Source: Acholoe squamosa
Lineage: Eukaryota; Annelida; Polychaeta; Phyllodocida; Polynoidae
Reading direction: 5' to 3'
Length of the DNA: 64,000 bases
Assembly: GCA_949317995.1 (NCBI GenBank)
Contig: OX439037.1
Location: 22,503,182-22,567,181 of the forward strand
Below, in pieces: positions 6,701 to 27,700 of the stretch. Under the pieces are notes generated by a model, which did not search any database, was not told the DNA's origin, and saw only the letters and a list, made by a program, of their open reading frames with translations. Positions within the stretch are counted from its first letter, which is position 1, and every line of letters begins with the position of its first letter. The translations under genes were made by a program, and so were the position numbers.

Positions 6701-9700
6701 CAATTGAGGTTGGTCTGCATGTGGGTTCTGCTGAAATAAGAAAGAGAAGTGCCAATCAGCGCACTCATCACGACCGGTTAGACCTTGAAGTGCCCCATGG
6801 TGTGTTACTTTAAGGGCCGCTATTGTAGGAGTGCATCATGCCCATTGGTCTGCATGATGCACCGATGAAGTGCTAGCAAGCAGTCTCGCCAGCGCTTCAT
6901 TGGTGCATCATGCCGAGCCTCTGGGATCCCGTAGGGTAGGCATGATGCATGAATGCAGCCCTGGTGAGTAACTCGCCAGGGCTGCATTCACGCATCATGA
7001 CGACCAATGGGCATGATACATTAATGCCCTAGCAGCCCTTCCCCACTTTGGATCATCATGGTGTATGAATGCAGCCCAAGTGAGTATCTCCAATGCTGTA
7101 TCTACACACCATGGAGACCTGATGCAGTTGATACATGCCTGAAGGGTTCACAATGATGCATCATTACAGTGCAGGCAAGTTACTCGCCAGCACTGAATTG
7201 ACACATCATGACAACAGACAGACATGAAGGTTAGGTTGTTCTGCTGCCCTCAAAGAATAAGGTTTGGTTTGAATTGTTAGAATCGATACTCATTGATGCC
7301 CAGTGTTCAAACAAGTAATCATGCAACAGTTACACACAGCAATAATAATAGTGCTCTTATTAAATGCATATCCATAAGAGCTACAACTTTAGGAAACACA
7401 TTACGTTCGTTCTATACAGTTTAGATAATCAAGGATACCTGAGAAATGATATTGTCAATGTCTCGTTACATGTCATGAAGTGAGGTAACAGGAGTCCAGA
7501 CAATTCAGTTGATGATCCAGCTTTATTGTAAGATTGGCATGATGAGTAACTGATACAGTGTACAATATAGTACTCGCCAGTCTGACCAAGCTATATCCTA
7601 AGCCAAGGCACCTGAGTGTCGTAGGGTCTAGGTTGGAGAAGAATAAGATGCTGAGGCTTGATCCTGACTAGGTTATATAGTCAGGAGCAAGCCCAGATGA
7701 CGTCGTGTCTATTTCTGTACTTTCTATTTTTAGTATAGGGAGCGACTCAAATATGCTGAGTCGGTGGTTCTGCTCAGTCCCAATCTGTGGTAGGAGGGGT
7801 GAGCTGCTCCTATTGGCTAGGTGAATCTAAAAATAGTTGAGTTCTCCAGTGGGGGATCCACAGGAGGGAGCCTGGGGATTTCCCACTGGAGGAGGGCAGG
7901 TGTGAACTCTTCACCCTGCCAAGCTAAAAATAGGTTGACCTTGGTTTGAACTAGGGGGTAGCTTGGCCAGTTTGGTTTGAGTATGTCGTTCATAATTATA
8001 ATACATAGAATAGTCCATTGACATATCCCCACATTCCCACTCATCTCTGCATGAGGTTAAAGGGAGTATAATTATAAGGAATGAGAGTCTATATCAAGTC
8101 CATTGACATGCTCAAGTATAAGATGTGAAATAGGGGGCTGAAAAGATGTTCAGCGCTGGGTAAAGATTGATATTACCAAGTTTCTTGTGAAAAGGGGGTA
8201 CAATATTTGGTTCTACCGGTAGTAGTTGGTACAAAACATAGGAGCTTGGATAACAACTGATATTTTTCTTAGCTAAAACTACTTGAACTTGCATCCTCTC
8301 AATTGAGGCAAATTCTGTGAACTAATTCAAAATAATCTGGCTTGAACACTACAAGAATAGATGCTAAGGGTACTAAGACTGCTCTGGCTGAGCAGGGTAG
8401 TAGGGGCATGACTAGGTCTGTCTTGTTCATCATACATTGTCAAAATACATTTTCTATATCCAGTATAAAAATATACGGTATAAAATTACAAATACATCAG
8501 CGGTATAAAAGCACAGATTGTTTAAAGGAGGTTTTAAATAAGGTGAAAATATGTACATGCTGTCCTTACATACAAGGTTTTAACAAATAAGTTAATGATT
8601 GAGCTGGGCAGTAGTGGTATCACTGCTAAGCTACATATATGGGCGAGGTGACGATCATCAGTGACATACAGTAAGATGTGACCGAAGATCTCTTTTGGAC
8701 TAGCTTGTACATAAAATAATTGAAAACACAAACTTGCATGCAAGGAGAAACTGTTCACCCAGAGCCGAGAGGTTGGTGAAAATGTGAAATTTCTAAAAAA
8801 AAATTTTTTGGATTTTTGGAAAAGGGGGCATTTGGCCCGAGGTAGTTGTCACTTGTTACTTTTGGGGTTGAAAGGCTTGCCGAGGTGGCATTCTGTAGAA
8901 TTTTAGTAGTGGAAATTACAGGCTCTGGATGTTCAACTTCTTGAGACAATAAATATTTCAAAACATTTTTCACACATGGTTTTCTACTGAGGCTAAAACC
9001 CATAAATACAATGACATGGTTGGGCTTGAAAAGAGGGATGGGGGCTCTGTGGCACCTGAAAGCTAGGGTTGATCTGCCAGCCAGGTCAACTCTAAGCTTA
9101 CACAGAGTTTTTACAAGTAAATGTATGGTGGTTTATTGGTTAAGATGGTACAATATGAGTTTGGTTTTATTTTTACCATCGTGGAGAAATCGTGTGAACC
9201 TTGCAGATCGAATTAAAGGTCACATACAAATGAAAGCGGTACTGTGGTTCTTGGGGGGGGGGCGTTTTAAATTGTGTCCCTACAATCGATAAATATGGAA
9301 GGAAGGTAAGAATAACACTGATTTGTAATTGAATTCGGAGGGGTTTACATGACTTTCTGAATATTAATGTTTCCATGGTTTACTGTCTCCAGCACTGACA
9401 CTGGAGGGGGGTAGGTTAGGGTGGGGTCTGGGGGTTCTTATGTAGAATCTGCCTCTTGCCCACTTCCTTCTGAGTGCAGCCCTTTTAATAGGAGTGCTGG
9501 GGTCTAAATCTATGTCTCTAAAATCCTCTTCCACCGAGGCCAGGTTGCCTGGTTCGGCAGAAGTAGAGGTTGAAGAGTCAGAGTCTTCAGACTCGGAGCT
9601 ATTGTCATTTTTGTTGTCCTGGTGATCTAGGTTTGAGGTGCTATTGGTGAAGGTGGTGGTGGTGTAGTGTCTCTGGGATACTAGGGGTCTGAACCTGATG

Positions 9701-12700
9701 CCTGTGTAGGAGCAGGGGCAGACAAAACCCTCAGGGGTGCTGGAGCACAGTCTGCACCCTGCTATTAGGCATTTTGGCCTTGCTGGGGTGCGGGGGTTGC
9801 TCCTCCAGTTGTAGCGGGCCTCTGGGATGGGGGTGTCGGCCCTTCTGCTGCGTGTATTTCCGCCGTTAGGGTTCGTTCCTCCTGAGTATTGAGGGTAACT
9901 GGTTTCCTGACCTGGGTATTTTTCGGCTGAGGAGTTTTCTGGTCTTTCAGGGCCGGCTTCGTCGGTGTTGGACTGGTCCCAGTCATCTCGCGTTGACCTG
10001 TTCAGAAAACAACATAGAGCCGAGAAAACAAAGCATTAGAGACCGTGTCAGGGTTGTATGGTTCACAATCAGGTCCGCAATAATACTAAGATTAACCCAT
10101 GGTGCTAAATTTTAGTCAAGTTGACACCTAGGAGTACCATACAGAAGCAAAGGTTTTGGTTTGGAGCTAGGCGGGAGGCCGTATCCAAGGACTCTATGTT
10201 AATTTCAATGCTACACACCTGGCGGCGCCAGCGGACGGTCGCTGGGCCGTACGCTGCTTTGTCTCGGATTTTAGTTCAGGAAAATAACACCAAGAGGCGC
10301 CACTGCACCAGCGTCTGTACAGCGTTTGGTTAATGTATGGGATTTACGTTAAGGCCTATGAGTTTACGGTAAATGAGAGATGTAGACTTGCACCAACCCT
10401 TCAGGGTTGGGACGGGGGCTGGGGAGGTTTACTTTGTATTTTGGGTTGGGGGGGGGTTGGTTTGGTTTTGAGAATTTTGGAAAACGACTGGAACGGTCTG
10501 GATTTTTGAGGTTCGAAAATTGGGCCGAAAAATGAGCTTAAGGTTCCCGCGGTAGGGTCCACTATAAAAGGGGAAGACGGCGTTTTTGACGTCAGAAACT
10601 GCTGAAATATTGACGGAGGAAGTTCGCACCAAACCCCGGAGATTTTGAAGGAGGCTCTGTGTTGCTTCGGCAAAAAAAAAGGAAAAGGATTGTCATGGAG
10701 GTGTCGCTCTCCATCCATGTCACGGAGTTGGGGACCGTTTGCCTGATGCTCCGCGTCGTTGAGCCGGTGGGGTGAGTCAAAATCTAATGGATGGATTCAT
10801 TGTTAATGTGCTAATTTGTTCGTCGTTGAAAAACATTATGCTGTTTTTCACAGAGGGTGGCTTTGGTTTCTCTCCAGGGTGCGTGTGTATCTGGTGGTGG
10901 TTGGATGGGTGCCCTATGCGTGTCATGGTTTTAAGGGCCTGCAAGGGGGCCCCGGGGGCACCGGCAGCGGACCCTGTGGGGTTTCTGCTTAGGAGAGAGG
11001 TGAGTGATATTTCAGGAGTTTTTGAAATTTTGTGGGGCTATTTTTAGGTTTTTAATTAGGAGGGTTGAAATGCAACGAAAAATTTGAATCCTTGTAAGGG
11101 GTCGATGGGGAGTAAAGGGCTGTCTGTTTGGTTTCAGGGATATTGATATGAAGGCGTGGGTCGGTTGAGGACGGGCAGACAAGAGAGCCGGGGAGTGAGA
11201 GAAAGAAAGAAAAGGAGGATGTGAAGCCGGAGAAAAGGACTAGATTCCAGAAGGTGGCGAGGCCTAATGCGCTATGTGATTGACTGTGATTTCCCTGTGA
11301 TTTATTATTGTGATTACGGCATCAACAGCCAGAAGGGCTCGGATCAACCTGTGATAAGTGACTTTGATAATATGCTTGATTCCTCGTGATTTTAATGTGA
11401 TTGGCGCCAGAGAACCTGATTAATTTGTGATATTTGCTAATAATATAGAAAAGTCCACCACCAGTTTAGAGTTTTGTTATGGATTTTGGGGCTTGTAAAT
11501 TGGGTGCCGGTGTTGTCTGAATTAGATTGGTATAGTGATCGGGGAGTGGTAAGTCGGGGTATGTTGCAAGTCTACTGTAATATAAACACGTGCATATGTT
11601 ATTGTATTGGCGTGCACACCACGTGTGGACGTTTATTTGGTTATGCATATTGTCATGTGAGCGTGATCACGTGCGAAAAATTTGCATTTGGTGACTGGTT
11701 TCGGTACTGGGGACGCTCGGCAACGTCATGACGCTGCGTTTGGCGCGAAAATGCCCAGACGCAGCGTCAGCACTAGACGTCTGTGATCCGCTAACAACAT
11801 TCAAAATTGGGTCAGTGGGGCTGCTATTGTATAGGTATGTGGCGGTATGTTTGTTTTAATGGGGCTATGTTTGTTAAGCTGATAAGACTGACGGGTAATG
11901 GGATGGGAGTCTGGAATGAGATGAGGCATGGCTCGGCATCGCCGGGCTGGGTTATCTGTGGGGTAGGGGGGGGGGGGGGGTGGGGTATCCCCACATAGGA
12001 TGTGTTATCCTGTGTGTGGCTATCCGGTCGTGTGCTGTGGTATGGTTGGTCGGTTCCATTATATGAGAAAATAGGGGTGGCCGGTGGCTGTAGAACGATT
12101 TTGGCTACGAAGACATGTGGGTATCCCCACATAAATCAAGACACGGACCTTAAGGATTTTGAACGGAAAAATAAACATACCGATTTCTGGTGGGAATTTG
12201 GTAGATATATCCTCCAGGGTGGGGTCGAACACGTACATGTCCTTAGGGGGTTGGTAGTCCTTTGGTGTGAATTTAGTTAGCTCCACCTGGCCGCTGGGAT
12301 TTTGGGTACCCCTGGGCCTGGGGCTGGGGCTGCTGGGGGCCTGGATCCTGGGGATTTCTGGGATGTTGGTGTCTTCGATTGTCTCATATCCCGGGGTCAG
12401 CTGGAAATCTGGCTGGGTCTTGGATTTGATGACCAGGGTCATAACATGTGGCTTCCCATTTAGGATCCTGTAGAGGGGTAGTCTCCAGAAAAGGGGGCAG
12501 CGAGGGTATCTCTCGAGCTGCACCACTCTTAATTGAGCGCCAATTATGAAGCTGACCTTGGCCTTCCAGTTGAGATCCAGGTGGCGGCCGAAGGGCATAG
12601 TGAGGCGGGGCTTTCCAATTTTAGGGGCCTTAATGAAGGGTGGCCATAGGTTGGAGCCGAAAATCATGGTTCCCACAACAAACTCGTATGTTCTGCCCTG

Positions 12701-15700
12701 GGAGTGGATGCGGAGGACAAACTGGGGCAAGCCATCGGATTCGTCTTGCCTACAGTGTGGCCAGTGTCTGCAGCATCTGGAGATGAAGAGGCGGGCCAGG
12801 TACAAGATGATCAGGACGGAGCCGATTGCCCACATCACATCGTAGCGTCCAGGAGTCTGGATAAATTCCAGGCTTTGCTCCACGGGCTGTTGTGTGGGTG
12901 TCGAGGGCCAGTTGTTGTTGGCCTTGTTGATCAGATCCTTGAGATTCTGCCAAGTCGCTGCATCCGCCATTCTGGGTGTGTTGAGTGCTAGATGGACTGT
13001 CACCAACTGAGCCAGGCGTGACACGCGCATCTGGATCTGGCATGTCATTGCACAACAGAGGATGGCAATCAGAGGGGTCACTAAGTGGAACCAGATCGAA
13101 TATTCCAAATGGTAACCAAGGTGTATTAGTGAACTTGCTGACAGAAGAGAAGACTCATCTGACAGACCCTTGGCTGCTCGTTTGAGGGTGAGTACGCTTT
13201 TAATTAAGGGTACTATTTTTTGGTTGTGTAAGGATTTGAGACGCTGGAGGTTAGGTAGTTCCAGGGACCGTGGCACGGTTGTCATGGTAACGCCTGATAT
13301 GTTAGCTGGAGGTGAACCAAAATGTCGCCATAGTGGTAAGTTTATGGGGCTCATGGCCATGGGTTCCAGTGTTATATTTTGTACGCAGGTTATATTTGAA
13401 TTGATCATAACCATGCCTGCGTTCTTAATAGAGCATAGGCATGGTACTGACATGACTGAGTATGCTGCATTGATCATTGGGATTTGTCCCGCATTGTGAC
13501 ACTGTAAGTAAGATGGCGATTTACTAGTGATCATGAGATATGTTGACCTAGAAATGGGTTTGATTAGGTTGGGTATGGGTGCAGCCATGTGTGCAGTGAA
13601 ACTGCAGGTGTGGTGCACTGCATCAGGTAGGTCCAGGAGTAGGGACAGAGTGCAGGTGGGGTGTAGAGGTGATAGCAGGGGGAGGGGTAGGTTACAGCTG
13701 ATGAAGGTGTCTTGTGTACATAGGTCTAAGTCTGCCTGCTGAAGCTCCATGAAATGGGCGTGGCTGGGAGACATGGCTATGTAGGGGGGTAGGGGCTGTA
13801 CCAGGGTGTAACCTGTAGAGTTAACATCTGATGTGTCAAAGGGGACTGGAAAGGTTTCAGTTCTGAATAGGGTGTAAACATTATCCCCTAGTCCTATGGG
13901 TATGGGTAGTGAGATGAAGAGGGTGGAGGGGTCACTCCACTGGGCACTTACTCTTCTTTTATAGTAATGACCTATGGGTATGTCAAGGATTGATATGCCT
14001 TGGTGGGCGCTACTCAAGGCGCTGGAGAGGTTGTTTAGGCCTGACCTGAGGGTGTCATGGGAAATTAAGTTGGGAGGGAGCTCGCCCTCCACTAAGCTGT
14101 TTATGGCACTTAATAAAATGTCTAGATCCTCCTGAAGGTCGATTAGTGACTCAATTTGTGAGTTTGCTGCAGAAAATAACATGGAATAAAAGGTGTCCTG
14201 TCTGGCTTGGGATTCTAACTTTAAAATAATGTTTGAAAAGTTGGAATCTAATGTTTTTAGATTTTGGGCCAGCAGGGACAGTGCGTCGTCAGTATCATTT
14301 TGGAATTCAGATAGGATGTTTAGGGAATTGTAATTGTATTCTGAGATATTTAATAGAAAATGGGTGGCTAATTCAACCACATGCATTTTAGTGGCCAATC
14401 TTCTGTCAATGTCAGAAATGTCAGCGTTTAGAAGGTCAATTTCAGGTTGGGTTCCCAGGCCTAGGGTTGCTCTGAGAATATCGCCAATGATTTGTCCTGG
14501 GGCATTTCTGGCCTGACGGTTCCTGGGGTTGGAAATTAAATTAATCAAAAGGTCTAATGAATTTTGGGTTTTGTCAAATAGGGTGCTAATCAATGTGTCC
14601 AGATTGTTGGCTGTTTGGGTAATGTATGGTAGGGTGCCGGGCTTAAGTAGGGGTGACACTTTATCAGGTCTTTGGAGGTTGGGGGACAGGGAGATGTTCA
14701 GACTGAAAACTAGGGGGTAGTCCATGAAATTTGAGATTAGGGGCTGTGGTAACTGGGTAAACAGTGTTCCATAATTTGGTCTGAATACGATCCTTTGTGG
14801 TAACTCCTTGTCCTGTGATCCATTGGTGAGGTTGAAGAGGATACACAGCACTATTAGAGGTACTGCGGCTCTGTAAAAGAGATGTGATGGGGGGATTGAG
14901 TTTGTGAGTCATATCAGCAATTGGGTTATGTGGTGGGGGATTTTATGGTCGATTGTGTGGGAGGTGTCCTCCTGTGAAAGGGGACTGTAGGCACACCTAG
15001 GTGGGTGTAGTGTGGTTTGTTTAAACAGTGGGGGGTGGTTGCTTGGCGAGGGTGTGAGGGGGGTATGATGGAGATGTGACTGGACCTGTGGTATTAGTAG
15101 GCTAAGACTAAATGGGGGGGTTGTGAGAGTAAAAATTTTGTAGCTTACCCTGTCAGATTTATTTCAGCAATGGGCTGTAGGTGGGAGTTTAGACAGGTTA
15201 TTGGACCACATGTGGGTCTCAAGAATGGCTTTCTGAACTACTAATTCTATGGCGTCCCTGATGACCAAAGCTCTGCCCGTCCCACTAAAGTATCTGGGAA
15301 GGTCTTTTAAAGGCTGGTCAGAGACCAGAAGTGTGCGCGCGCACAGCAAGGCTATATAAGCGGCTGTTTTAGGTTTGAAGGTGCTCCAATCTGGAGAAGT
15401 TGGCATGTCACAACAGACATAAAGTAACATCCTCTTGACGAGGGTAGAGACCAACGGGTTTGATAGCGGCAGTTCCTTGTGGACTGCGGGGTCATTCAGG
15501 TAATATGCTAAATGTCTAGAAGTCATATTGAAGACCAAATTTTGGTGGTGTACAATGAGCTGCCTAAACTCAAAAATGTCTCTTCCTTCTTTCAATAATC
15601 CAACCGGTCCCAGGAGGTCGTAGATTGTCCAATTTTCACTGAAGAGAAGTTTTAATTTGAGTAAGCTACTTTTTTGAATAAGCTGTAAACCATACAGAGG

Positions 15701-18700
15701 GGTGAGTATAGGGGCACAAACAATTGAGTCAGGTATGGGGCGCGAAGTGAACAATCAAACTTTTTACAGGTATTCTAGTACTCACACTGCCATTGGTTAA
15801 TAGAGGTACCTGGGTAGCATGACATCAGATTATGTCATTGACCATATAAGAACGACTGATAAAACTAGTACTGGTTAATGGGCACATAGGACAGGCCTAC
15901 CTGGGCTTATTGCACGTCGTAAACGCCATGGTGATCCCTGGTCCAGGCACTTGTTCACTTGGAACGCTGATATGGTGTGATCTGGGTGATATTGTGGAGT
16001 GGCTAAGGTGGGGGTGGGCTAAGGCTTATAAACCCATCCGTGAGGGTGGCTATTTCTCACTTTTGGATATCCCTATAGTGGTATGTCTTGCCCTAAAAAG
16101 GCTGGGCCTGATTCTATTGGATGGCTGCAGTTTGGGCATATGTCCCTTATGCAAATTTGGAACCTATACCCCGGTAATAAGCTTTTAATTGGAATTCCTG
16201 GGGTCAGGTTTGAGATAAGGCGGGAGTGGAGAGGTCAGTTCACATGTCTAAAAATTTGCTGACCATGAATACATGTGTGTGAGAAACATCATGCCTGGGG
16301 TACCGAGCTGCTCTTAATTGACAGCTCATAAATATGGGGTTCTACCTGTATCAGCGCCCTCGTGCTAAACAGAGGTACAAACATGGGTGGGCATGGGGGA
16401 ATACGAGCACCTACAATAGGCGTGTCAACTGGTAAATAGGAGCCCTGAAAAGCTATCTAGCCGGTGTATGCATGATTTTTCTTTAAATGAAAACATGTAC
16501 CAGAGGATACACTGCTGCCGTGGGCAATTTATGTGGCTACCTAACCATAGCTGGACAAAATTGTGTGCATATGCTGCCCTTGAGTGGTTGACAGTGCGGC
16601 TGGTTGAAGGGTTTGATCCTGGGATCAAACAGTGTATAATTGGGCTCATTGGGCCTTTGATAAATAATTTAAAGGAAAAATAAAATCGGTTTGAGAAAAA
16701 CGAGATATATATAATAAAAGGATAAATATAAAAACAAAAGGCGTGCGAGGTGATAAGTTAAGAGGTGAGTGTTAGTAAATCTTCAAAGAAGAGAAAAAGG
16801 GGGTACCTGATGATATGGGGTGCCGCTGAGGGAATTTGTTATCATCAGGTCGGGGCTTTGAGGTCGGTGGTCACATGTGTAGGGTGGGTAATTGGGCCTA
16901 GGTGTGTGTGAGTGCGGGTGTCCCTGTAGATAGCAGGGGTGTGGCACGTGGCCTGAGTGTGGGCCAACAGCCCTGGTGAGTGTTGGTGTGTGTGTGTGTA
17001 TGGGGGGGGGGGGGTCGGGGTTGAGAGGTGTTTCTGTGTGTGGGGGGGGGGGTATTTGTGCTTTCTCTATATGTGATTTTAACGAAATTTCATTGCTTCC
17101 TTTTCTTTGCCCTTTTCTTGGGTGATGGGGCAAAGGTGATGATACCTTTCTTTGCCGGCCTTCCTCTCTTTTTCTTGAGGGGAGGAGCTGGTGTATTGGT
17201 ATCAGCAATTATGCTTGAATCAGGGTCGAAGAGAGTTTGTACAGGACCAGTCTGGAGCCTTTTTATGATGGCTTTGGCGCTGGCTCTAGTAATTGGTCTT
17301 CTCAGCCTGGACACATGTACTGCCTTTTTAAAGACATGTCCATCCTGCAACCTTTTTAAAATTGCAGTTACTGATGAGGTCATCTTAACTATGATGTAAG
17401 GGCCAGAGTATGTGGGTTGCAGCTTTTTGGTGGTGTGTTTCACCAGGAGGTTGGGTATATGTAAGTACACCAACTGACCAGTATTGAAGGTGGCTACCTC
17501 TGCAGAGGCGTCATGCTTGGCCTTCATCTTTTTGTGGGCCTTTATCATGTTTTCTGCTGCCTTCATTTGAATTTCATCCCTGAGATTTAATAAATGAGTG
17601 GCTACATTTTCTTTTTGTGCCGGGTCAACATCTTCTGTTGCTGTGATCAGTGCTAATGCAGCCTCTGTGGGTAGATGGGTTTGTTTTCCAAATACCAGGA
17701 GATTGGGTGAGTAACCCAAGGCACCGGAGACTGTGTTATTCATGCTAAAAATCACAGCTTGGAGGAAGGTTGACCAATGTTTTTGTGATTTAGACACAAA
17801 GGCTCTGAGGGATGATTCTATTGTCTGGTGTTGGCGTTCACATAGACCTTGAGATCTGGACCAGTGTGCGCTCCCTGTGACATGCTTAATACCAAATTTA
17901 TTGCAGAAGAGGGCAAAGAATTTTGAAGTGTATTGTTTAGCATTGTCAGTGTTTAAAACTGAGGGAGTGCCATGGATGCAGATCACTCTCTGAAAGAAAC
18001 CAAGGGCTACCTCAGCGCTTGTGTTGTCTTCTGTGCACCATGCTGTTACATGTCTAGTGGCATGATCTGTGACCACATGTATGTGGTGGGATCCATTAAC
18101 GGCCTTGTTAAATGGTCCTATTGTGTCCATGGTGACGTGAGAGTAGGCTGTGAGTACAGGTTCACGGAGTGTCATTGGTGATTTTAGGTTTTTCGGCCTC
18201 TTTTTGGTGGTAAGGCATGTGTGACATGTGCCACAGTAATCAAACACCTGTTTGAACATTGAGCGCCAATAGTACCGTGACCTGATAGCTGCATATGTTT
18301 TCATTGAACCCAAGTGCCCTCCTAATGGGGAGCAGTGTGTGGATTCAATTAATGATTCTGCCCACTTTTCTGGAATCACAATTTGGAGGGAGGGGTCTAG
18401 GGATTTACCCATGACTGTGTCAGTGATTCTGAAAAGTACCTCATCTAGTATGATGAACTGATCATGATTGGCTAAAATCTGATTTGTCAAGCCTTGATCT
18501 GGTGGCAACTTTCCATCCTGAATGTAATTTAGCATTGATGAAGCAAAAAGATCTTCTTTTTGTGCTTTAATCAATACTTCTCTAGAGGGTGTGAGTGAGG
18601 GGTGCTTGCAAATTTTGGTGATAGCCCTCTCAGCCAAAGGTAACACTTTGTGTGACAGCTTGGCGCGTCTGGCATTGGCTGCCTTAACTGATACCCTGGG

Positions 18701-21700
18701 TGACCTAGACTTGGGAGGTCGACCTCTTGGCCTTGAACCAGCTGGCTTGACTTTTGTGGGTCGGCCTTGTTTGTTTACAGCGGTTCTGGACCGTGATTGG
18801 CTGGGGGCTGGGGGTGTGTCTTCCTGGGAGTTCTGTGACTGTGCCCTGGTCAAGACGCACAGCTCCGTTGGCGCTGCTAGTGAAGCTAAGTGGTTTCTTT
18901 CAGAGCTATTTTTCTTTGCAATTACACCTTTGGGTGGTTTGCCTGTGCTTCCCCAGATTTTACCTCCTTTTAGAATTGATCTAGGGGGTCCCATCTGGAT
19001 TGGGTTCTTGGGTACTGGCTCGTTGGACCTAAAGACTTTGGTCATGGAGATATCAGAGAAAGTTAATTTCTTGGGGGGGAGAATAATTTTCCCCTGGGAT
19101 CTAATTGGCACTGGGTCATCAGAGCTGGGTGGGTAGGATCTCCTGGATAGGAAATCTGCCACAAAATTTGCTCTGCCTTGCAGATACTTCACCTCAAAGT
19201 CGTAAGACATGACTGTGTCTACCCACCTGGCTAGTCTCCCATTAGTAATGTTCTCTTTTTTATTAAAAAGGGAGACCAGGGCAGTGTGGTCTGAGTACAC
19301 TTTGAAGTGGGCTCCATCCACATAATGGTGGAACTTTTTAACTGCAAAGACGATGCCTAGAAGTTCTTTGTCTGTTATTCCATATCTCGTCTCCTGTGGT
19401 GTCAAACCTCTACCTGCAAATTCAATTGGTCTATAGAAACCATTTTCATCTACCTGTGTGATCACAGCTCCCAAGCTATAGTTGCTTGAGTCTGTAAATA
19501 TGACAAATGGCTTGCTGTAGTCAGGGAATTTGAGGACAGCTTCAGTGCAAATTGAAGCTTTGATTTTCTCAAAGGCGCGCTGGCAACTAGTGGTCCATTT
19601 AAAGGTCCCTTTGGTGGCTTCATATAGAGGTGCCATTATGTGGGCAAAACCTTTAATAAACCTTTTGTAGAATTGTGCCATGCCATTGAAACATCTAAGG
19701 TCGTGGATGTTTTTAGGTGGAGGGAAGGTTTTGACTGGCCAGATTTTGTCTGGGGAAGGTGACACACCGTGTTGATCTAGAGAAAATCCCAAGAAATCCA
19801 TCTTGGTTGTGCCAAATTCACATTTTTCTGATTTCAGTTTGATATTTCCCTTGATGAAAAGTTTGAGTACCTCATCTAGGTCCTGCAGGTGTCTTTCCCA
19901 GGTGGGGCTATAAATAGCCACATCGTCAACATATGCTACTGCATTTCTGTACTTGCATTTCATGAGCAATTGCTCCATGACATTCATGAAAGACAAACCT
20001 GAGGTTTTGAGTCCCATTGGGAGAACTTTGGCCATGTATCTGGTTCCATTGGCTGAAAAGGTGGTAATAGGCCTAGATTCTTCCGCCAGGGGAATTTGAT
20101 GGTAGGCACTATATACATCTAATTTTGAGAAATATTTTGCACCTGTTCTGCCAACTTGTTGCATGAGGTCGTCTGCTCTGGGGAATTGGTAGGAAAAAGA
20201 TTTGAGGTTTTGATTAACCCATCTGTAATCCACTACCACTCTCCAGCCTGAGGCTACAGATCTGTCTCCCTGAGGTTTGGGTACTAAGAAAGCTGGTGAA
20301 TTCCATTCACAGGGCTTGGTACATTCCTCAATGATTCCCTGTTTTAAATGTTTATTTAGGAGCTCTCTTTGGAAAATTTCTTTATGAGGGGACATTCTGT
20401 ATGAGGGCCTGTTGCAGGGCTTGAAATCTGGAATTAATTCCAGCTTGACCTCATTCTCAGTGTTGGAGCCAATGGCGCTGTCATCAATCACAAAAGCCTG
20501 CCTATTCTGTTCAACAATTTTACGCACCTGCGTTTTTTGAGTCTCAGTGAGCTGCTCACAAATTTTGTATTGTAGGGGTTCATTACCCTTGGGAAATTGC
20601 TCCAGGGGGTCTTCACCACAATTTATTGGAAAAAGCTCGCTGGCAGGTGAGACATGGTTCAGTGAATGATGAGTGTCCAGGGGGCCTATTGGTATAGCCT
20701 TTTTCATGTTGAAAGGTTTGAAAATACCTAGAGGTGTGTGTTTCTTCTTTAAATGCAAAGGAAAATCATTTGGATTTGCCACAGTTACCGGTATTAATTT
20801 TGCACTAGTCTTGGGTTTAACCAAGGCGTGCTTAATCAGGAAAGGTAGGGCTGGTTTGATATTTTCAGTGATGCCTGTCAATTTATTTAAATTTTCTGAA
20901 CCGTTGACAATAGCATTGAGAGTGGTTTCAGAGTTTGGTGGTATTGTGATATTTTCAGCAGGCCTGATTGTGTTTATGGAGGGAAGCTTGGGGCCAAAAC
21001 TAAGCTTAGCTTTGTACTTGGTCATGAAGTTTACTCCAAGAATGATGGGGTGATTTAATTTTGGTACCACATGTAATCTTGTAACAAATTCTTTGCCTTC
21101 AATTAGGAAGCTGAGTGTAATGGCATGGTTTACCTGTACTGTGGATCTGTCTGCTAGGAGGACATTCATACGTGAGCGTCTTCCATGTTTAAAGTTTGGG
21201 GTGTGTATTACCTTATCTGCCATTTTTTGACTGATAAAAGATAGGGATGCTCCAGAGTCTACCAAAGCTCTATAGGGGTGGTCATTTATGTCGACAAAGA
21301 CTGCACCTTTAGTTAACTCGGTATTAATGCGAGAGACCTTACCTTGCTGCCCATACTTATCTGACTTGATTCTCAGTTGAAGCCGTGCCACTCTGCTACT
21401 GCTGTCCTCGTAACAGTCTTCGCTGTCTGAAGAGGAGCTGTCACCAAAATCCAGGTTGTTGTCCTTGGAAAAATCCATTTTTGGCCGCTGTAGGGAGTTG
21501 ATTTCTGCATCACTTTGAATATCAGTTGGGTGGTGGCTGGCGGGGGGCGTTCCAGATTTCATATCCACTGTGGTGGGGGCGGGGTGGTTTGGTGCTTTGC
21601 ATCCTTCCCCTGAAACCTATTCTTCGTCATCATAGTCTGTGTCTTCATCAATGAAGTCTTCATCACCATCGTTGTGATCATGATTGTCTTCATCAATGTT

Positions 21701-24700
21701 ATGTAGGTCAGCGTTGCCCTCAGGTTCCGTCGGATCACTTTCATTGTTATTCCTGGGGAATCTGCTGGGTGTGGGGTCTCTGGTCCTCCTATTCTGGTAA
21801 GGGGGACTATTGCTGTTTATGATATCAGCCTCATGTGTGACCTTTTTAAAGGAAACCTGTTTATTGTTTGCCGGGGCTGTGGCCACTGTGATGACTATTT
21901 TGTTGTCATCCCTGGAGGTAGGATTTCTGGAGGCGCTTTGTGATCTAGCTCTTTGCTGAGGTGGTTTATTTCTTCCTCCAGAAGCATCCTGAGACCTTGA
22001 CCTTCTGAACCTTCTGTAATTGGGGTCAGATTGGTTGCTGGAGCCGTTTTGGGTCCTGGTCTCATACTGCCTGTTGTAGTTGCCACTGGGGTACCTGTCA
22101 TACTTTTTATTGTTGGAGTATTGGTTTTCCTTTCTGGGTGTGCCACTATTGTTTTTGTTACTGTTCATGGCACAGAGGTCTGCTTGTTGGGTCCCAGCCA
22201 TGGCCATTTTATGTGCTTCTATGCGCAATTCCTGTGTAAGGGCCATTTTTTCTGCATCAGCTATGGTTTTGGGCATGTCAGGGAGGATTACTGATTTAAT
22301 TTGAGGCTTAAGCCCATTAATCAGGTAATCCACTTGAACTGACTCCTCCAGGTTGCTGTTTGCCAAGAGCAGGGTCATGTCTTCTAAGTACTGTTCCACT
22401 GTCTCATCTGGCTGTTGTGTCCTGTTTCTATAACCTTTGCTGATGGTTGCAGGGTCAGGGGTGCCAAAACGCTTCAGGAAGGCTGCATATACTGCCTCAT
22501 TGTCATACATGATGGGCTTCTCAAAAATATTGGCGAAGAACCATTGAGCTGCCCTGCCCTTTAGGAAGGTGTATAGGCAGGAGGCGTGCAGGTGTTGGTG
22601 GCGGGGGTATACATTCCTGATCCAGAACTTAAATTCTGTGATGAATTTGGCGGCAGACCTGTACTCAGTTGGTTTGTCAAATGTCTCAGGCTTATTAAAA
22701 GAGCTGAGTTGGGCTGAGGAGAGTTTGTCATCACTCAAAGTCATTTGACCCAAACCACTGGCGATGTGAGATTGGCCTATCATTGGTATCATAGGGGTGG
22801 AGTGGTCGTATGCCTGGCGGTGTCCTGTTGGATGTGCACCTGTGCTTTGAGAATACAGGGTTTGCATGGGTATAGGCATGTTGCTGGGTGTACGAGCATG
22901 AGCAGGGATATAGATACTACCTGCCACTGTACCTAATGTGTTAGCATTGGCCTGCACTGGGGTGGTGGCTGGAGCTGCCATCTGGCGAGTAGCGGAGACA
23001 CTAGGAATATCGTCTCGGGTTGACCTGTGTGAGGTGGGCGTGGCACCCAATAAACCAGCTGGAGTGTTGTTCTGGAAGGCGCTGGGTGGGCTTGACCTTA
23101 TGTCATTGCCAGCATGTTGGAAACCTGGCATGGTAGGTGCACTGGGGGTCTGTGAGGCATGAGGTATACCCAAGTTTGCCGGTGAGGAGTGGGCAGGAGG
23201 GGGCTGGAGTGGGGGCCTGTGGCCATAAACTGAGCAAATCTCTCTCCTAACATCATCCATGTTCCTGTTGATGCGCTCAGAGATATCTGCTGCCATCATT
23301 TCAGATCTCCTCAGGACATCTGCATTATCTTCTGCAGCTCTCCTGTGTGATTGTATCAAGTCGCGCTCCATTTGAGCCCTCCAGGTGTCCATGTTGTCTA
23401 ACCTGTCGTTGACCCTGTTTAGATGGCTGGTGTGCTCCTGGCCTACCCTTTGGATTTCAGCTGATAGGAGATTAATCTGGCCAGTCAGTAAATTGCTTAA
23501 GGAATCACTGACTGCCTGTGTACATTCTCTTACCAGATTCCTGGCCAGGTCGTCCTGATCATACCTGGGAGGATGTGTAGTGGGTGTCCTGCTGTCCATC
23601 CTGCCTCTGCGTAGGTGGGGGAAGGTGATTTCAGGATCGTCCTCAGAGGTTAGGCTGTCTTCTGAGGTGCAGTATGGGGTGGCTCTTCTCCTGAAGATCT
23701 GGGAGGTGGCTCCTATAGCACCTGCTACTGCTGAGTCTATGCTCCTCAATACCCTATAGTAGGGGGGTGTCTGCCTTCTAAGAGGTGAGGTAGACTGTGC
23801 CCTCCTTCTCCTGGGGCTAGGTAGGGGTGTATAGTCTGAAGAGGTGGCCCCTGTGTCCAGGTTTGGGGTATTGAGAGTGTTTGGTGGTGTTGGGGTGGCC
23901 TCAGGGGTCGGGGTATTTAGATATGACCTGAAGGGGTCACTAGATGTGGTGGCGTCAGGCCACTGCTCCTCTAGTATTCTATTAATGCGACCTAAAAATG
24001 CTGAGGGACTTTCACCACACTGTGTATTGTGAGTGTTGGGGGCTGGTGCCTCCTGAGCTCTATTTGTCCTTACTGATCTCCACCTATTGATAGCTGATCT
24101 TATCCTTTGTCTCCAGAGATCAGATTCAGGTGGTAATGTAGGGTCAGGGGGAATATAACTGTCCCAGGTGAGTTCAGAAGGGTTGGGGTGTGTAAAACCA
24201 GCTGGGGGTGAGGTGGTGTCTGTACCGGTAGCAGGCTGCCGAGGTAATGTAGGTATGCTTTCTAAGGCGGCCTGTAATCGTGGTGACCTGGGCTCTAGGT
24301 GTGAGTCTAGGTCTAAGTGGCTTGGTGAAGCTACAGGTGTAGATGATGTTTCACCTGGTAGACCAGCAAGTCTTAGGACTGGGGATTCAGCACTTGAAAA
24401 ACCAGGTAAAGTCAGATTAAGTCCTGGTGCCTGTGATGTGAGTGGGGTGCTGGTCTGTGTACCGGTATTATTGTCATCAATTGTTGATGAAAAAGTTTTG
24501 TTTCTACTCACAGGTGTTGGCTTGGGTGTTAGAAATGATGGTGGTAGGATTGGATCCAACAGAAAGGCGTCAGGTGACGAGTCAGATGACGGAACAGTCT
24601 GCTGCTGGTCTGGGGCTGCTGCTGGTGCTGCTGCTGCTGCTGCTGCTGGTGGGGGCGCGTCTAGCCCTGGGGATGTAACGGCATCTTCTGTAAATGGCTC

Positions 24701-27700
24701 TTTGGTTGTTGTCTCACTTTGATTCATGGCTCATGAGAGGTGAAAACAATGGGACGTTACAAATAGGGTTCTCCACCATTGTCAATGTCTCGTTACATGT
24801 CATGAAGTGAGGTAACAGGAGTCCAGACAATTCAGTTGATGATCCAGCTTTATTGTAAGATTGGCATGATGAGTAACTGATACAGTGTACAATATAGTAC
24901 TCGCCAGTCTGACCAAGCTATATCCTAAGCCAAGGCACCTGAGTGTCGTAGGGTCTAGGTTGGAGAAGAATAAGATGCTGAGGCTTGATCCTGACTAGGT
25001 TATATAGTCAGGAGCAAGCCCAGATGACGTCGTGTCTATTTCTGTACTTTCTATTTTTAGTATAGGGAGCGACTCAAATATGCTGAGTCGGTGGTTCTGC
25101 TCAGTCCCAATCTGTGGTAGGAGGGGTGAGCTGCTCCTATTGGCTAGGTGAATCTAAAAATAGTTGAGTTCTCCAGTGGGGGATCCACAGGAGGGAGCCT
25201 GGGGATTTCCCACTGGAGGAGGGCAGGTGTGAACTCTTCACCCTGCCAAGCTAAAAATAGGTTGACCTTGGTTTGAACTAGGGGGTAGCTTGGCCAGTTT
25301 GGTTTGAGTATGTCGTTCATAATTATAATACATAGAATAGTCCATTGACATTATTCTAAACATTATTTCTATCTGTTTTGTTTCCCCTTATACTTGTATA
25401 CATGCATAATTTTGTAAGTTTAATTTCACAAACATCAAACATGTTTAGACAATCTAACTTTAAATACCTGTTTTAAAGGGGAATTTAGAAATCATTTCAA
25501 AGTCTATGTAGATTCTTAACTTAAGATAAGTATGCAGATAGAGTGAACAAACTATACTGCATACCACATGCCACACTCCTAAGCTAGAAAACTGCTGAGT
25601 TAAAATATTTCTCACTGAAGACACAGTAGCACTCTCATTTACTACCTAATTCTGCTACAATTAACTAATAAAGACCTGGTTTTCATTAAAGCGACTCTGA
25701 CAGGAACAAAAACAGTTTTCTTTGCTGAGGGCGATAAAGGCAGAAAAATACAGAATAGATGATAAGATTTGTTAAACACCATGTTTCGATTCTGTCAATG
25801 TCGCATAAAGAAGTCCAGACTAGAGAGAGCACCACATTAATTCCATGCAGCTTATTCTAATTTCTGTGCTTATCTGTATATGTGTGCATTGACGACGGGA
25901 CAACCTACACTATTAATCAACCTTAAGCATGTTACCACAGGGCCTAATATCTTTCGTGTCATGAGACCATAACGGGAACTAGTCATATATGTTAAAGAAT
26001 AGGTAGAGAATGGAGGATGGTTGAAAACAGTTCTATGAATAACAAAGAACGAAGTCCATCAACTTGGTCGGAAAAGGTGTCGTTATGTCTATAGTTTACA
26101 TTTATATTAATGGTTAAGTTTTTTTTTGGTCAGTTTTTACTTGTCTGAATATTGTAGAATAGAATTGACACTCCTCTGTTATGCAAGAAATATTTGTGTT
26201 AGTCTCTAACTGGTTTCCTCTCACACAAAAAGGTGCTGCAGGTACATCCTGCTAGGAATGAAAGGAAGAATTCTCATGAAAAGACTGATAGAGAAAGCTG
26301 TTTTTTCTACGGAGAAATGACAAGGCTAAATGTATCAGGAGATGAATGAGAGAGAGGGATAGATGCTTTCAGTAGGTGTCATAAGAATAATCATTTTGTT
26401 CTGATTTGATATTTTGTTCTTATGCAAAATGAAAAGAAGGAAGAATACAATTCTAGAGAAAAAAAAGATGACAATGGTGTACTGCCCGGTTGATGATTTT
26501 TTACAGGATTCTCTCATTGTGCACTAACATCAAGATAATTAGAGTGGCAAAGACTAATCTTTAAGGGCCTCATAATGCAATCTCCCTTGTCGCCATGATG
26601 TATAAATGCATCCCTAGCAAGCAGTCATGCCATCATACAAGGCCAATGGGTTTCACAAACTCCCAAAGTTATGCATGATGCACTGACACAGCGGTTAATT
26701 GCCAGTAATGTAGCTAGGTGCATCATGACGACAAAGGAGTTAGAAGCGCGAGGCATCACGCAGTCCTTAAAGTGTTAAACCTACTCCAGGACAGGCTCTG
26801 CCATGGCCTAACGTGTAACACCTGTCTGCCACAATTATGTTCTTTAAAGTGTGAAAGTGTTACTAAGGTCTTCCAGTTTCATTGGTTAGATTCCCTGCTC
26901 GGCCAACTTTGGGATACTTGGTAGTACAAGGCATGTTTGCCTTTATACTGCTTCATCCCTTGTTTTAGTGTCTGTTATTTGCAGTAAAATGTGATGAACA
27001 CGAGTAGGTTATCTAACCAATACAACCATACCTAAGAAGCAGCTCTTTCACAAAGTGTATCTCTCCATGCAAATGGTGGGCCACACAAAAAATAGAAACA
27101 AATAGTGTGGCCAAACAAACCACACAGGCTCAAGTGACAAGAGGTTAAGAGTTTTAGAGATGCAAATGCTCACTATTGGACTTTCTTCTTCCTTAGTAGT
27201 CTCCTCCTGCTGCTGAACCTCAACCTCAACCTACACACAGGCCAAATGATATGACACAGATGCAGCTTTGCATTACTTATCAAGGCGAAATGAAATGTAG
27301 CAATGCACAAGGCGCGTATTGAATATATTAATCGAGCCATCAATCTATGTGAGTTCACACCCAAAAATAACTTTCTACTCAGATAAGGTTTCCTGGTAGA
27401 AAAAAAAGACTACCGTAACACAAGTGTGGCTTATATCTGGGAGTTAACAGTAGTTTTGAGATTGTGTTTTTTTTTTTTTCTTTTCTGAAAACTAGAGAAT
27501 TGTCCACGGCATGAGATCATTTATCTCACTTTCTTATAATTAATTATTTTTGGCTGTAAAGGTTATGCCCAAGTGTTTTTATTGTTCCAGGTAGAATATA
27601 CACCCAGTGTTTGAAGAGCTACATTCATCAGTTTTTTATGTTTGTCTTGTTTGTATTTGAAAAGATATTTCAAAGGGCGCAAGCTAAAGTATGAACTGGA

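What the first reader, a model, noticed from the sequence alone, without database searches (positions are those of the whole stretch)
7453..25350. Giant, apparently intact env-bearing Ty3/Gypsy element with identical LTRs
At 17.9 kb it is two to three times the usual size. Its 571-bp LTRs look identical, gag, pol and env frames are open, and there are at least two extra ORFs. This points to recent activity and an endogenous-retrovirus-like life style in an invertebrate.
Basis: partly seen in the sequence, partly recalled or inferred. Interest (0 to 1): 0.9.

Follow-up and report, generated by a model that had tools for sequence, protein, structure and literature searches.

The report
Giant retroelement with hypervariable antisense gene
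A very large, recently active virus-like jumping gene in an animal genome appears to carry a tiny gene on its opposite strand that comes in many very different versions, swapped between otherwise almost identical copies, which hints at an evolutionary arms race inside a genome.

Summary
A 17,898-bp Ty3/Gypsy element lies on the minus strand at 7453-25350, with identical 571-bp LTRs and open gag, pol and env-like frames. It is one of a young family: 16 elements (window included) had both LTRs among 40 scored LTR matches, 11 with both LTRs identical to the window's. Gag had no stop in 43 of 44 scored copies, Env in 47 of 49. Two extra sense genes, ORF-X and ORF-Y, are under purifying selection.

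The surprise lies between env and the 3' LTR. The opposite strand holds a TATA-type promoter and a predicted spliced gene for a 63-residue protein. Copies whose env is about 99% identical carry very different versions: 7 types in 30 env-selected copies, about a dozen overall. Nine 63-residue representatives are 21-73% identical. Within types pN/pS is 0.17. Types are unlinked to env variation and three recur in copies 18-30% diverged nearby. This looks like a balanced multi-allelic accessory gene shuffled by recombination. There are no transcript data; function is inferred, and whether the env-like protein is a working Env is untested.

The parts
24780..25350 (-). 5' LTR (571 bp, TG...CA)
   Evidence: identical to 3' LTR
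7453..8023 (-). 3' LTR (571 bp)
   Evidence: 28 of 40 scored genome matches reach the full score of identity
24766..24778 (-). primer-binding-site-like stretch TGGTGGAGAACCC; tRNA not identified
   Evidence: sequence
21617..24727 (-). gag, 1036 aa
   Evidence: Retrotrans_gag E 1.6e-4, just under cut-off; 43 of 44 scored copies without stop, 99-100% identity
17090..21568 (-). pol, 1492 aa: protease, RT, RNase H, integrase with zinc-binding domain; GPY/F-like SGPYIIV (motif name recalled)
15164..15754 (-). ORF-X, 196 aa stop to stop, no known domain
   Evidence: found in 8 of 12 stretches asked, no in-frame stop in those 8 when aligned to the window's frame, pN/pS 0.18-0.25 in the 3 most diverged; homologue P0121, 47% identity
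12059..14862 (-). env-like gene (exon from a predicted splice acceptor; open frame 12059-14908): signal-like start, RNRQAR cleavage-like site, 12 sequons, TM-like stretches
11275..11431 (.). cluster of TGTGAT motifs (ATCACA on the sense strand)
   Evidence: 7 of 22 plus-strand TGTGAT of the element lie here
10428..11458 (.). variable cassette (outermost limits; they differ by pair compared): unrelated or highly diverged in other copies
10563..10571 (+). TATAAAAGG box of the antisense promoter-like block, followed by TGACGTCA
   Evidence: related core in other types: 75 exact matches genome-wide, 0 of the reversed control
10695..10771 (+). predicted antisense gene, exon 1 (77 nt, ATG; donor GTGAGT follows)
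10878..10992 (+). predicted antisense gene, exon 2 to stop (63-aa protein with exon 1)
9364..9997 (-). ORF-Y, ~211 aa, Cys cluster and Arg-rich stretch, no in-frame ATG; begins at a conserved splice-acceptor-like site
   Evidence: 136 of 150 scored matches without stop; pN/pS 0.27-0.47 in frame, 0.81-1.65 in the other two
8024..8047 (-). purine-rich, polypurine-tract-like run before the 3' LTR
   Evidence: sequence

Best explanation
It is a recently and probably still active family of giant, env-bearing Ty3/Gypsy (Metaviridae) retroelements with a complex-retrovirus-like gene set: gag, pol, ORF-X, an env-like gene and ORF-Y on the sense strand, and on the antisense strand a small spliced gene with its own TATA-type promoter. 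Shown by sequence: the anatomy, the many near-identical intact copies, purifying selection on ORF-X, ORF-Y and the antisense coding frame, and the multi-allelic state of the antisense gene on an almost clonal backbone. Inferred: full-length RNA from the LTR gives Gag and Pol; spliced RNAs give Env and ORF-Y; the antisense gene is expressed from the integrated copy independently of the LTR. Recombination, most simply template switching between co-packaged RNAs, moves antisense alleles between backbones, and selection favouring rare types keeps many ancient alleles in circulation. The most likely driver is a host-facing conflict: the 63-residue protein probably binds, or is seen by, a variable host factor (estimated 40%). 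Less likely are type-specific exclusion between co-resident copies, or escape from small RNAs aimed at common cassettes.
For: Family and activity. Lineage: best solved match is Ty3; RT clade with P0001-P0006, 100/100 support. Antisense gene: 63 aa with a 77-nt first exon in 9 representatives of different types, one from a distant element family; dN/dS 0.14-0.39 for the closest type pairs; pooled within types pN/pS 0.17; 26 of 39 variable columns at third codon positions, p 2e-5. Multi-allelic: 7 types in 30 env-selected copies, effective number 6.0. Unlinked: env distance 0.0058 within and 0.0057 between types. Old alleles: types G1, G6 and G8 also occur in copies whose DNA just upstream of the TATA box is 70-82% identical; the G1 protein there is 61 of 63 identical.
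Against: No RNA or protein evidence for any gene. Copies were chosen by best match, which favours intact, similar ones and limits the power of the linkage test. Splice sites were predicted by consensus: the 63-aa choice ranked first by pyrimidine tract in 6 of the 8 types examined, third in G5, and in G6 no 63-aa form appears; the script also required an exon-2 motif. It predicted the gene in 40 of 50 copies; 5 more (G5) were read with a type-specific motif and 5 gave none. Within types the few differences of G1 and G3 are all non-synonymous. One control frame (reverse +1) also gave a low ratio, 0.34. Among distant types dN/dS ranges 0.27-1.40 at saturated dS, many near or above 1. L051, L054, L063 and L086 carry altered, truncated or decayed forms. 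Fusion activity of Env is untested. ORF-Y's upstream exon is unknown: the simple gag-donor splice gives the wrong frame at the conserved acceptor.
Confidence: 0.8

Rival explanations
1. The antisense types are leftovers of old subfamilies; neutral recombination put them on one expanding backbone, with no selection for diversity.
For: Diverged copies carrying the same types exist, so a pool of donor alleles is at hand; recombination is evident (two copies with ORF-Y 88% but ORF-X 99% identical to the window).
Against: In the 30 env-selected copies diversity is 0.15-1.1% from 16351 to 12152 and about 2.5% at 12151-11552, but 18-44% in the cassette, where unlike sequences are being aligned. Neutral mosaicism should also leave deep patches in gag or env; none was seen in what was surveyed, but pol and most of gag were not surveyed at DNA level. 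Types are evenly frequent (effective 6.0 of 7).
Confidence: 0.2
2. The cassette gives type-specific exclusion: a resident copy's antisense protein or antisense RNA blocks elements of the same type, as a copy-number control.
For: Own promoter-like block, antisense to the genomic RNA, many types at even frequency.
Against: Protein-level exclusion needs a co-varying partner; env, the part tested, is unlinked to type. RNA-level exclusion would not by itself explain codon-level conservation.
Confidence: 0.25
3. The cassette is captured host sequence: promoter and first exons of host genes.
For: It has a promoter-like block, exons and introns, like a host gene. Some distant protein matches were not fetched, and two that were (L095, L096) match only within the cassette, so their setting is unknown.
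Against: Of 75 promoter-core copies, 68 lie within 1.5 kb of a listed ORF-Y match and the other 7 are in element-related DNA. Of 5 distant matches fetched, one lies beside an ORF-Y match (L093), one extends into element sequence (L097) and one does so weakly (L094).
Confidence: 0.08
4. An ordinary giant Ty3/Gypsy transposon: the env-like gene is not a fusion protein and no infectious phase exists.
For: No match of Env to a known Env family; no usable structural model.
Against: Signal-like start, furin-like site, 12 sequons, TM-like stretches, and pN/pS 0.23 over 30 copies chosen by similarity.
Confidence: 0.25

Closest known systems
Env-bearing Ty3/Gypsy elements, genus Errantivirus (Drosophila gypsy; details recalled)
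   Same: LTRs, gag-pol-env order, short target duplications, env from a spliced RNA (predicted here)
   Different: About twice the size (errantivirus size recalled); RT in another clade; no Baculo_F-type Pfam match for Env; three further genes
Burro (planarian) and Ogre (plant) giant Gypsy elements (PMC6431247, passages read)
   Same: Giant Gypsy-type elements with extra genes; Burro also carries an env-like region
   Different: Burro has env in frame between gag and pol in one polyprotein; Ogre owes much of its size to long LTRs; no multi-allelic antisense gene in the passages seen
Grande gene and Retand TRP28 antisense ORFs of plant Gypsy elements (PMC11963269, passages read; Grande's own paper seen only as a title in its reference list)
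   Same: Antisense gene in a long stretch between pol and 3' LTR, in Grande from its own promoter
   Different: No TRP28 match here; predicted spliced 63-aa protein; many types on one backbone; animal host and env-like gene
HTLV-1 HBZ and HIV-1 ASP antisense genes (PMC10186651, start of abstract in a listing and passages)
   Same: Antisense accessory gene of a retroviral genome; ASP is described as a membrane protein with cysteine triplets
   Different: Those are driven from the 3' LTR; here an internal TATA-type block; no sequence similarity claimed or tested
Foamy-like fish endogenous retroviruses with accessory ORFs, up to 17 kb (named in a passage of PMC6431247)
   Same: Similar size, accessory ORFs
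   Different: Retrovirus-like, not Ty3/Gypsy

Membership tests
Metaviridae (Ty3/Gypsy) | Pol order PR-RT-RH-IN | tested here: met
Metaviridae (Ty3/Gypsy) | RT closest to Ty3-type enzymes | tested here: met
   the two best solved chains are 7q5b (Ty3 Gag-Pol, E 1.2e-89) and 4ol8 (RT/RNase H), ahead of foamy-virus, murine and HIV-type chains (virus names partly recalled)
Metaviridae (Ty3/Gypsy) | TG...CA LTRs with 4-6 bp target duplication | tested here: met
   3 of 3 other copies perfect 4 bp; window 3 of 4 bases
Metaviridae (Ty3/Gypsy) | primer tRNA binding site | tested here: inconclusive
   candidate stretch, tRNA not identified
Errantivirus | RT groups with errantiviruses | tested here: not met
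   apart from the errantivirus-like P0111 (only one such named row)
Errantivirus | Baculovirus-F-type Env | tested here: not met
   no such Pfam match; a diverged F-like fold is not excluded (unusable)
Chromovirus lineage | chromodomain at the Pol C-terminus | tested here: not met
   none; outside the main chromodomain group
Retroviridae | RNase H duplication with tether | not tested
   one RNase H region by Pfam, no dedicated test
Infectious endogenous retrovirus | functional fusogenic Env | not testable with these tools
   needs bench work
Retand/Grande-type antisense gene | TRP28 domain (PF04195) | tested here: not met
   no such Pfam match for the 4 types scanned (one has a sub-cutoff COPI_assoc match, E 0.07)
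HBZ/ASP-type retroviral antisense gene | promoter in the 3' LTR | tested here: inconclusive
   a promoter-like block is internal, next to the gene; its activity, and any LTR antisense activity, are untested

The most novel reading that the evidence does not exclude
A transposable element carries a multi-allelic gene under balancing selection, comparable in pattern to MHC or self-incompatibility loci: about a dozen ancient protein types of an antisense-encoded 63-residue factor persist across element subfamilies and are continually reshuffled onto a clonally expanding retroelement backbone.
Probability: 0.5. Interest if true: 0.88.

Novelty: new variant of a known kind. Interest (0 to 1): 0.76.

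Why it matters
Balanced multi-allelic genes mark sustained conflict and are known from hosts and pathogens. In the listings seen here (open-licence papers only, some listings capped) none was described inside a transposable element. If right, it gives a natural, countable record of an arms race between a retroelement and its host, or between copies, and a test bed for how retroelements exchange modules. It also adds an invertebrate example of a large, env-bearing metavirid with conserved accessory genes.

Tried and rejected
Host identity: Gibbula magus was suspected from 18 chromosomes and 1.47 Gb and rejected, because its longest scaffold is 117.5 Mb while C1 here is 127.1 Mb. The COX1 protein looks molluscan to me by recall only. 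Env homologues: the 7992 candidates sharing most words, of 5.8 billion proteins, were scored; none at E 0.001. Pol in viral contigs: none confirmed. AlphaFold of ORF-X and Env: pLDDT 37 and 34, not used, so no fold search was made. Troyka was considered and dropped: it has CG...CG termini, 3-bp duplications and no env (parts 1 and 2 of 5 of PMC12440569). Capture of host genes is not supported but not fully excluded; on checking, two of five fetched distant matches proved to show the cassette alone, so I raised that rival from 0.05 to 0.08. Splice maps: gag donor 24718 to env acceptor 14862 gives a signal-peptide-like start, but ORF-Y's leader was not found. The unspliced-like match at C7:15444210 is a G4-type copy whose intron frame happens to be open. 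RT tree: 61 rows, that is the window plus 60 of 119 proteins that passed a length filter (121 loaded); the search itself listed 120 of 577.
Full report
What is there. On the minus strand at 7453-25350 lies a complete 17,898-bp LTR element. The two LTRs are identical over 571 bases. Pol has the order protease, RT, RNase H, integrase and its best solved relative is Ty3. In an RT tree of 61 rows the window falls with six unnamed proteins (53-79% RT identity) in a clade with 100/100 support, apart from the one errantivirus-like row and from the chromodomain rows. Gag matches Retrotrans_gag just under its cut-off.

It is a large young family. The LTR search scored 40 of 1101 candidates: 28 reach the full score of identity and 12 are one step lower. 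From these positions I paired 16 elements with both LTRs, the window among them, 17,656-17,908 bp long; in 11 of the 16 both LTRs are identical to the window's. Gag: 43 of 44 scored copies without a stop, 99-100% identity, 6421 candidates. Env: 47 of 49 scored copies without a stop, 98-100% identity, 6717 candidates. These are the best-scoring copies, so they are biased towards intact ones; pol was not searched in the genome. Target duplications of 4 bp are perfect in 3 of 3 other copies; the window's has one mismatch.

Extra sense genes. ORF-X was found in 8 of 12 stretches asked for; aligned to the window's frame none of the 8 has a stop (frameshifts were not assessed). In the 3 most diverged (94-95% identity) pN/pS is 0.18-0.25; the other five are too similar to tell (0.24-0.95 on two to seven changes). 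It has one homologue at E 0.001 among 193 candidates drawn from 5.8 billion proteins, P0121, 47% identical. ORF-Y has no stop in 136 of 150 scored matches, with identity down to 73%. In 8 diverged copies, two of which carry a stop, pN/pS is 0.27-0.47 in its frame and 0.81-1.65 in the other two. Its first bases follow a splice-acceptor-like site kept in 20 of 20 further copies looked at, while the frame upstream of it is not kept. It has no in-frame ATG, so an upstream exon should exist; it was not found.

Env-like gene. The frame has a hydrophobic start, an RNRQAR site followed by a hydrophobic stretch, 12 sequons and TM-like stretches near 590, 676 and 894. Pooled pN/pS over 30 copies is 0.23. 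Known Env families were not recognised. A splice from codon 4 of gag to 14862 would give a signal-peptide-like start; this is a prediction.

The variable cassette. In 30 env-selected copies (of 49 scored; the window is one) nucleotide diversity is 0.15-1.1% from 16351 to 12152, about 2.5% at 12151-11552, then 18-44% from 11551 to 10562, where unlike sequences are being aligned. The copies fall into groups that share flanks on both sides but have different middles. Read on the opposite strand, each middle begins with a TATAAAAGG box in a mostly conserved setting and then shows ATG, a short exon, a GT donor, an intron of about 100 bases, an acceptor and a second exon.

Evidence that it is a gene. 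Seven sequences give exactly 63 residues with a 77-nt first exon; so do L057, L089 and L094, from a distant element family. L062/L065 gives 61 residues. G6 has a longer first exon and a different ending, and for L059 no complete gene was predicted. The choice of acceptor was not blind: the 63-aa form ranked first by pyrimidine tract in G1, G2, G3, G4, G8 and L060, third in G5. The script, which also required an exon-2 motif, predicted the gene in 40 of 50 copies; the 5 G5 copies were then read with a type-specific motif, and L046, L054, L058, L059 and L063 gave none. Among nine 63-aa representatives pairwise identity is 21-73%, median 39%. Eight positions are invariant in the seven first aligned, two of them cysteines. 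Within types pooled pN/pS is 0.17, from summed, non-independent pairs: G2 0.18, G4 0.17, G6 0.32, G8 and L062 0; the differences within G1 and G3 are few and all non-synonymous, and the 5 G5 copies are identical. Frame control, without G5: gene frame 0.15, the other two frames of the strand 0.80 and 3.33, the three reverse frames 1.06, 0.34 and 13.3. Of 39 variable columns 26 are third positions, p 2e-5. Between the closest type pairs dN/dS is 0.14-0.39, though dS there mostly exceeds 1; among distant types it ranges 0.27-1.40 at saturated dS, so nothing firm can be said there.

It is multi-allelic and moves. In the 30 env-selected copies the counts are G1 5, G2 7, G3 3, G4 4, G5 5, G6 5, G8 1, effective number 6.0. 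In 20 further copies, picked from the 150 ORF-Y matches for divergence, more types appear: L057, L059 (first exon only), L060 (83% identical to G3) and L062/L065; one stretch (L046) shows none and one (L063) is truncated. With L089 and L094 that makes about a dozen. Env distance is 0.0058 within types (60 pairs) and 0.0057 between types (375 pairs): no linkage, within a sample chosen for similar env. Of 75 exact promoter cores in the genome (0 of the reversed control), 68 lie within 1.5 kb of a listed ORF-Y match and the other 7 lie in element-related DNA. Three of these, whose DNA upstream of the TATA box is 70-82% identical, carry types G1, G6 and G8; the G1 protein there is 61 of 63 identical, the G8 copy is decayed, and the G6 copy's reading ends differently. 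Five places were fetched as short stretches: L093 lies beside an ORF-Y match, L097 extends into element sequence, L094 does so weakly, and L095 and L096 match only within the cassette. So several alleles are older than the present expansion and appear to pass between subfamilies.

How it works. The strongest reading is a recently active, env-bearing retroelement whose copies recombine freely, with an antisense gene kept diverse by selection for rare types. A host-facing role is preferred because the linked part tested, env, does not co-vary with type; that step is inference. The small protein is hydrophobic towards its first 40 residues (best 19-residue means 1.4-2.3), fitting either a membrane segment or beta strands.

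Known relatives. Antisense genes between pol and the 3' LTR are known in plant Retand and Grande elements, Grande's with its own promoter by the title of its paper (PMC11963269, passages read), and in HTLV and HIV from the 3' LTR (PMC10186651, start of abstract and passages). Giant Gypsy elements are known, Burro with an env-like region (PMC6431247, passages read). A multi-allelic antisense gene on a near-clonal animal retroelement was not met in the listings seen; Repbase and closed papers were not searched.

Host. A genome of 1.48 Gb with 18 large contigs seen. Its mitochondrial COX1 has 6 stops under the vertebrate code; tables 4, 5, 9 and 13 are all open, and AAA and AGA fall where I recall Lys and Ser in COX1, which points to the invertebrate code. 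The element sits in an intron of an intersectin-like gene, same orientation; that name rests on recalled SH3 and EH features, not on a search.

Noticed in passing
510-52679, minus strand: SH3- and EH-like exons suggest an intersectin gene; the element would lie in one of its introns, same orientation (gene name recalled, not searched).
   Followed up: no
L025/L044 (C7, 39.69 Mb): A copy about 620 bp longer between env and ORF-Y, with the antisense gene of type G2.
   Followed up: no
11275-11431: Cluster of TGTGAT motifs just after env, also seen in the distant family L094; possible binding array.
   Followed up: partly
L061/L076 and L062/L077: Two copies with ORF-Y 88% but ORF-X 99% identical to the window: mosaics.
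   Followed up: no
12059-12451: The env 3' end is more variable than the rest (1.1-2.5%) and holds a donor-like site at 12181; the true Env C-terminus may be spliced.
   Followed up: partly
P0001-P0006, P0121: Related Pol and ORF-X proteins in unnamed public assemblies, one on an 18.3-kb contig (P0004): relatives of this element may exist in other organisms.
   Followed up: no
C1:29676776-29678554: Inverted pair of antisense-gene-like matches about 1.3 kb apart; one side fetched (L097), element-related.
   Followed up: partly
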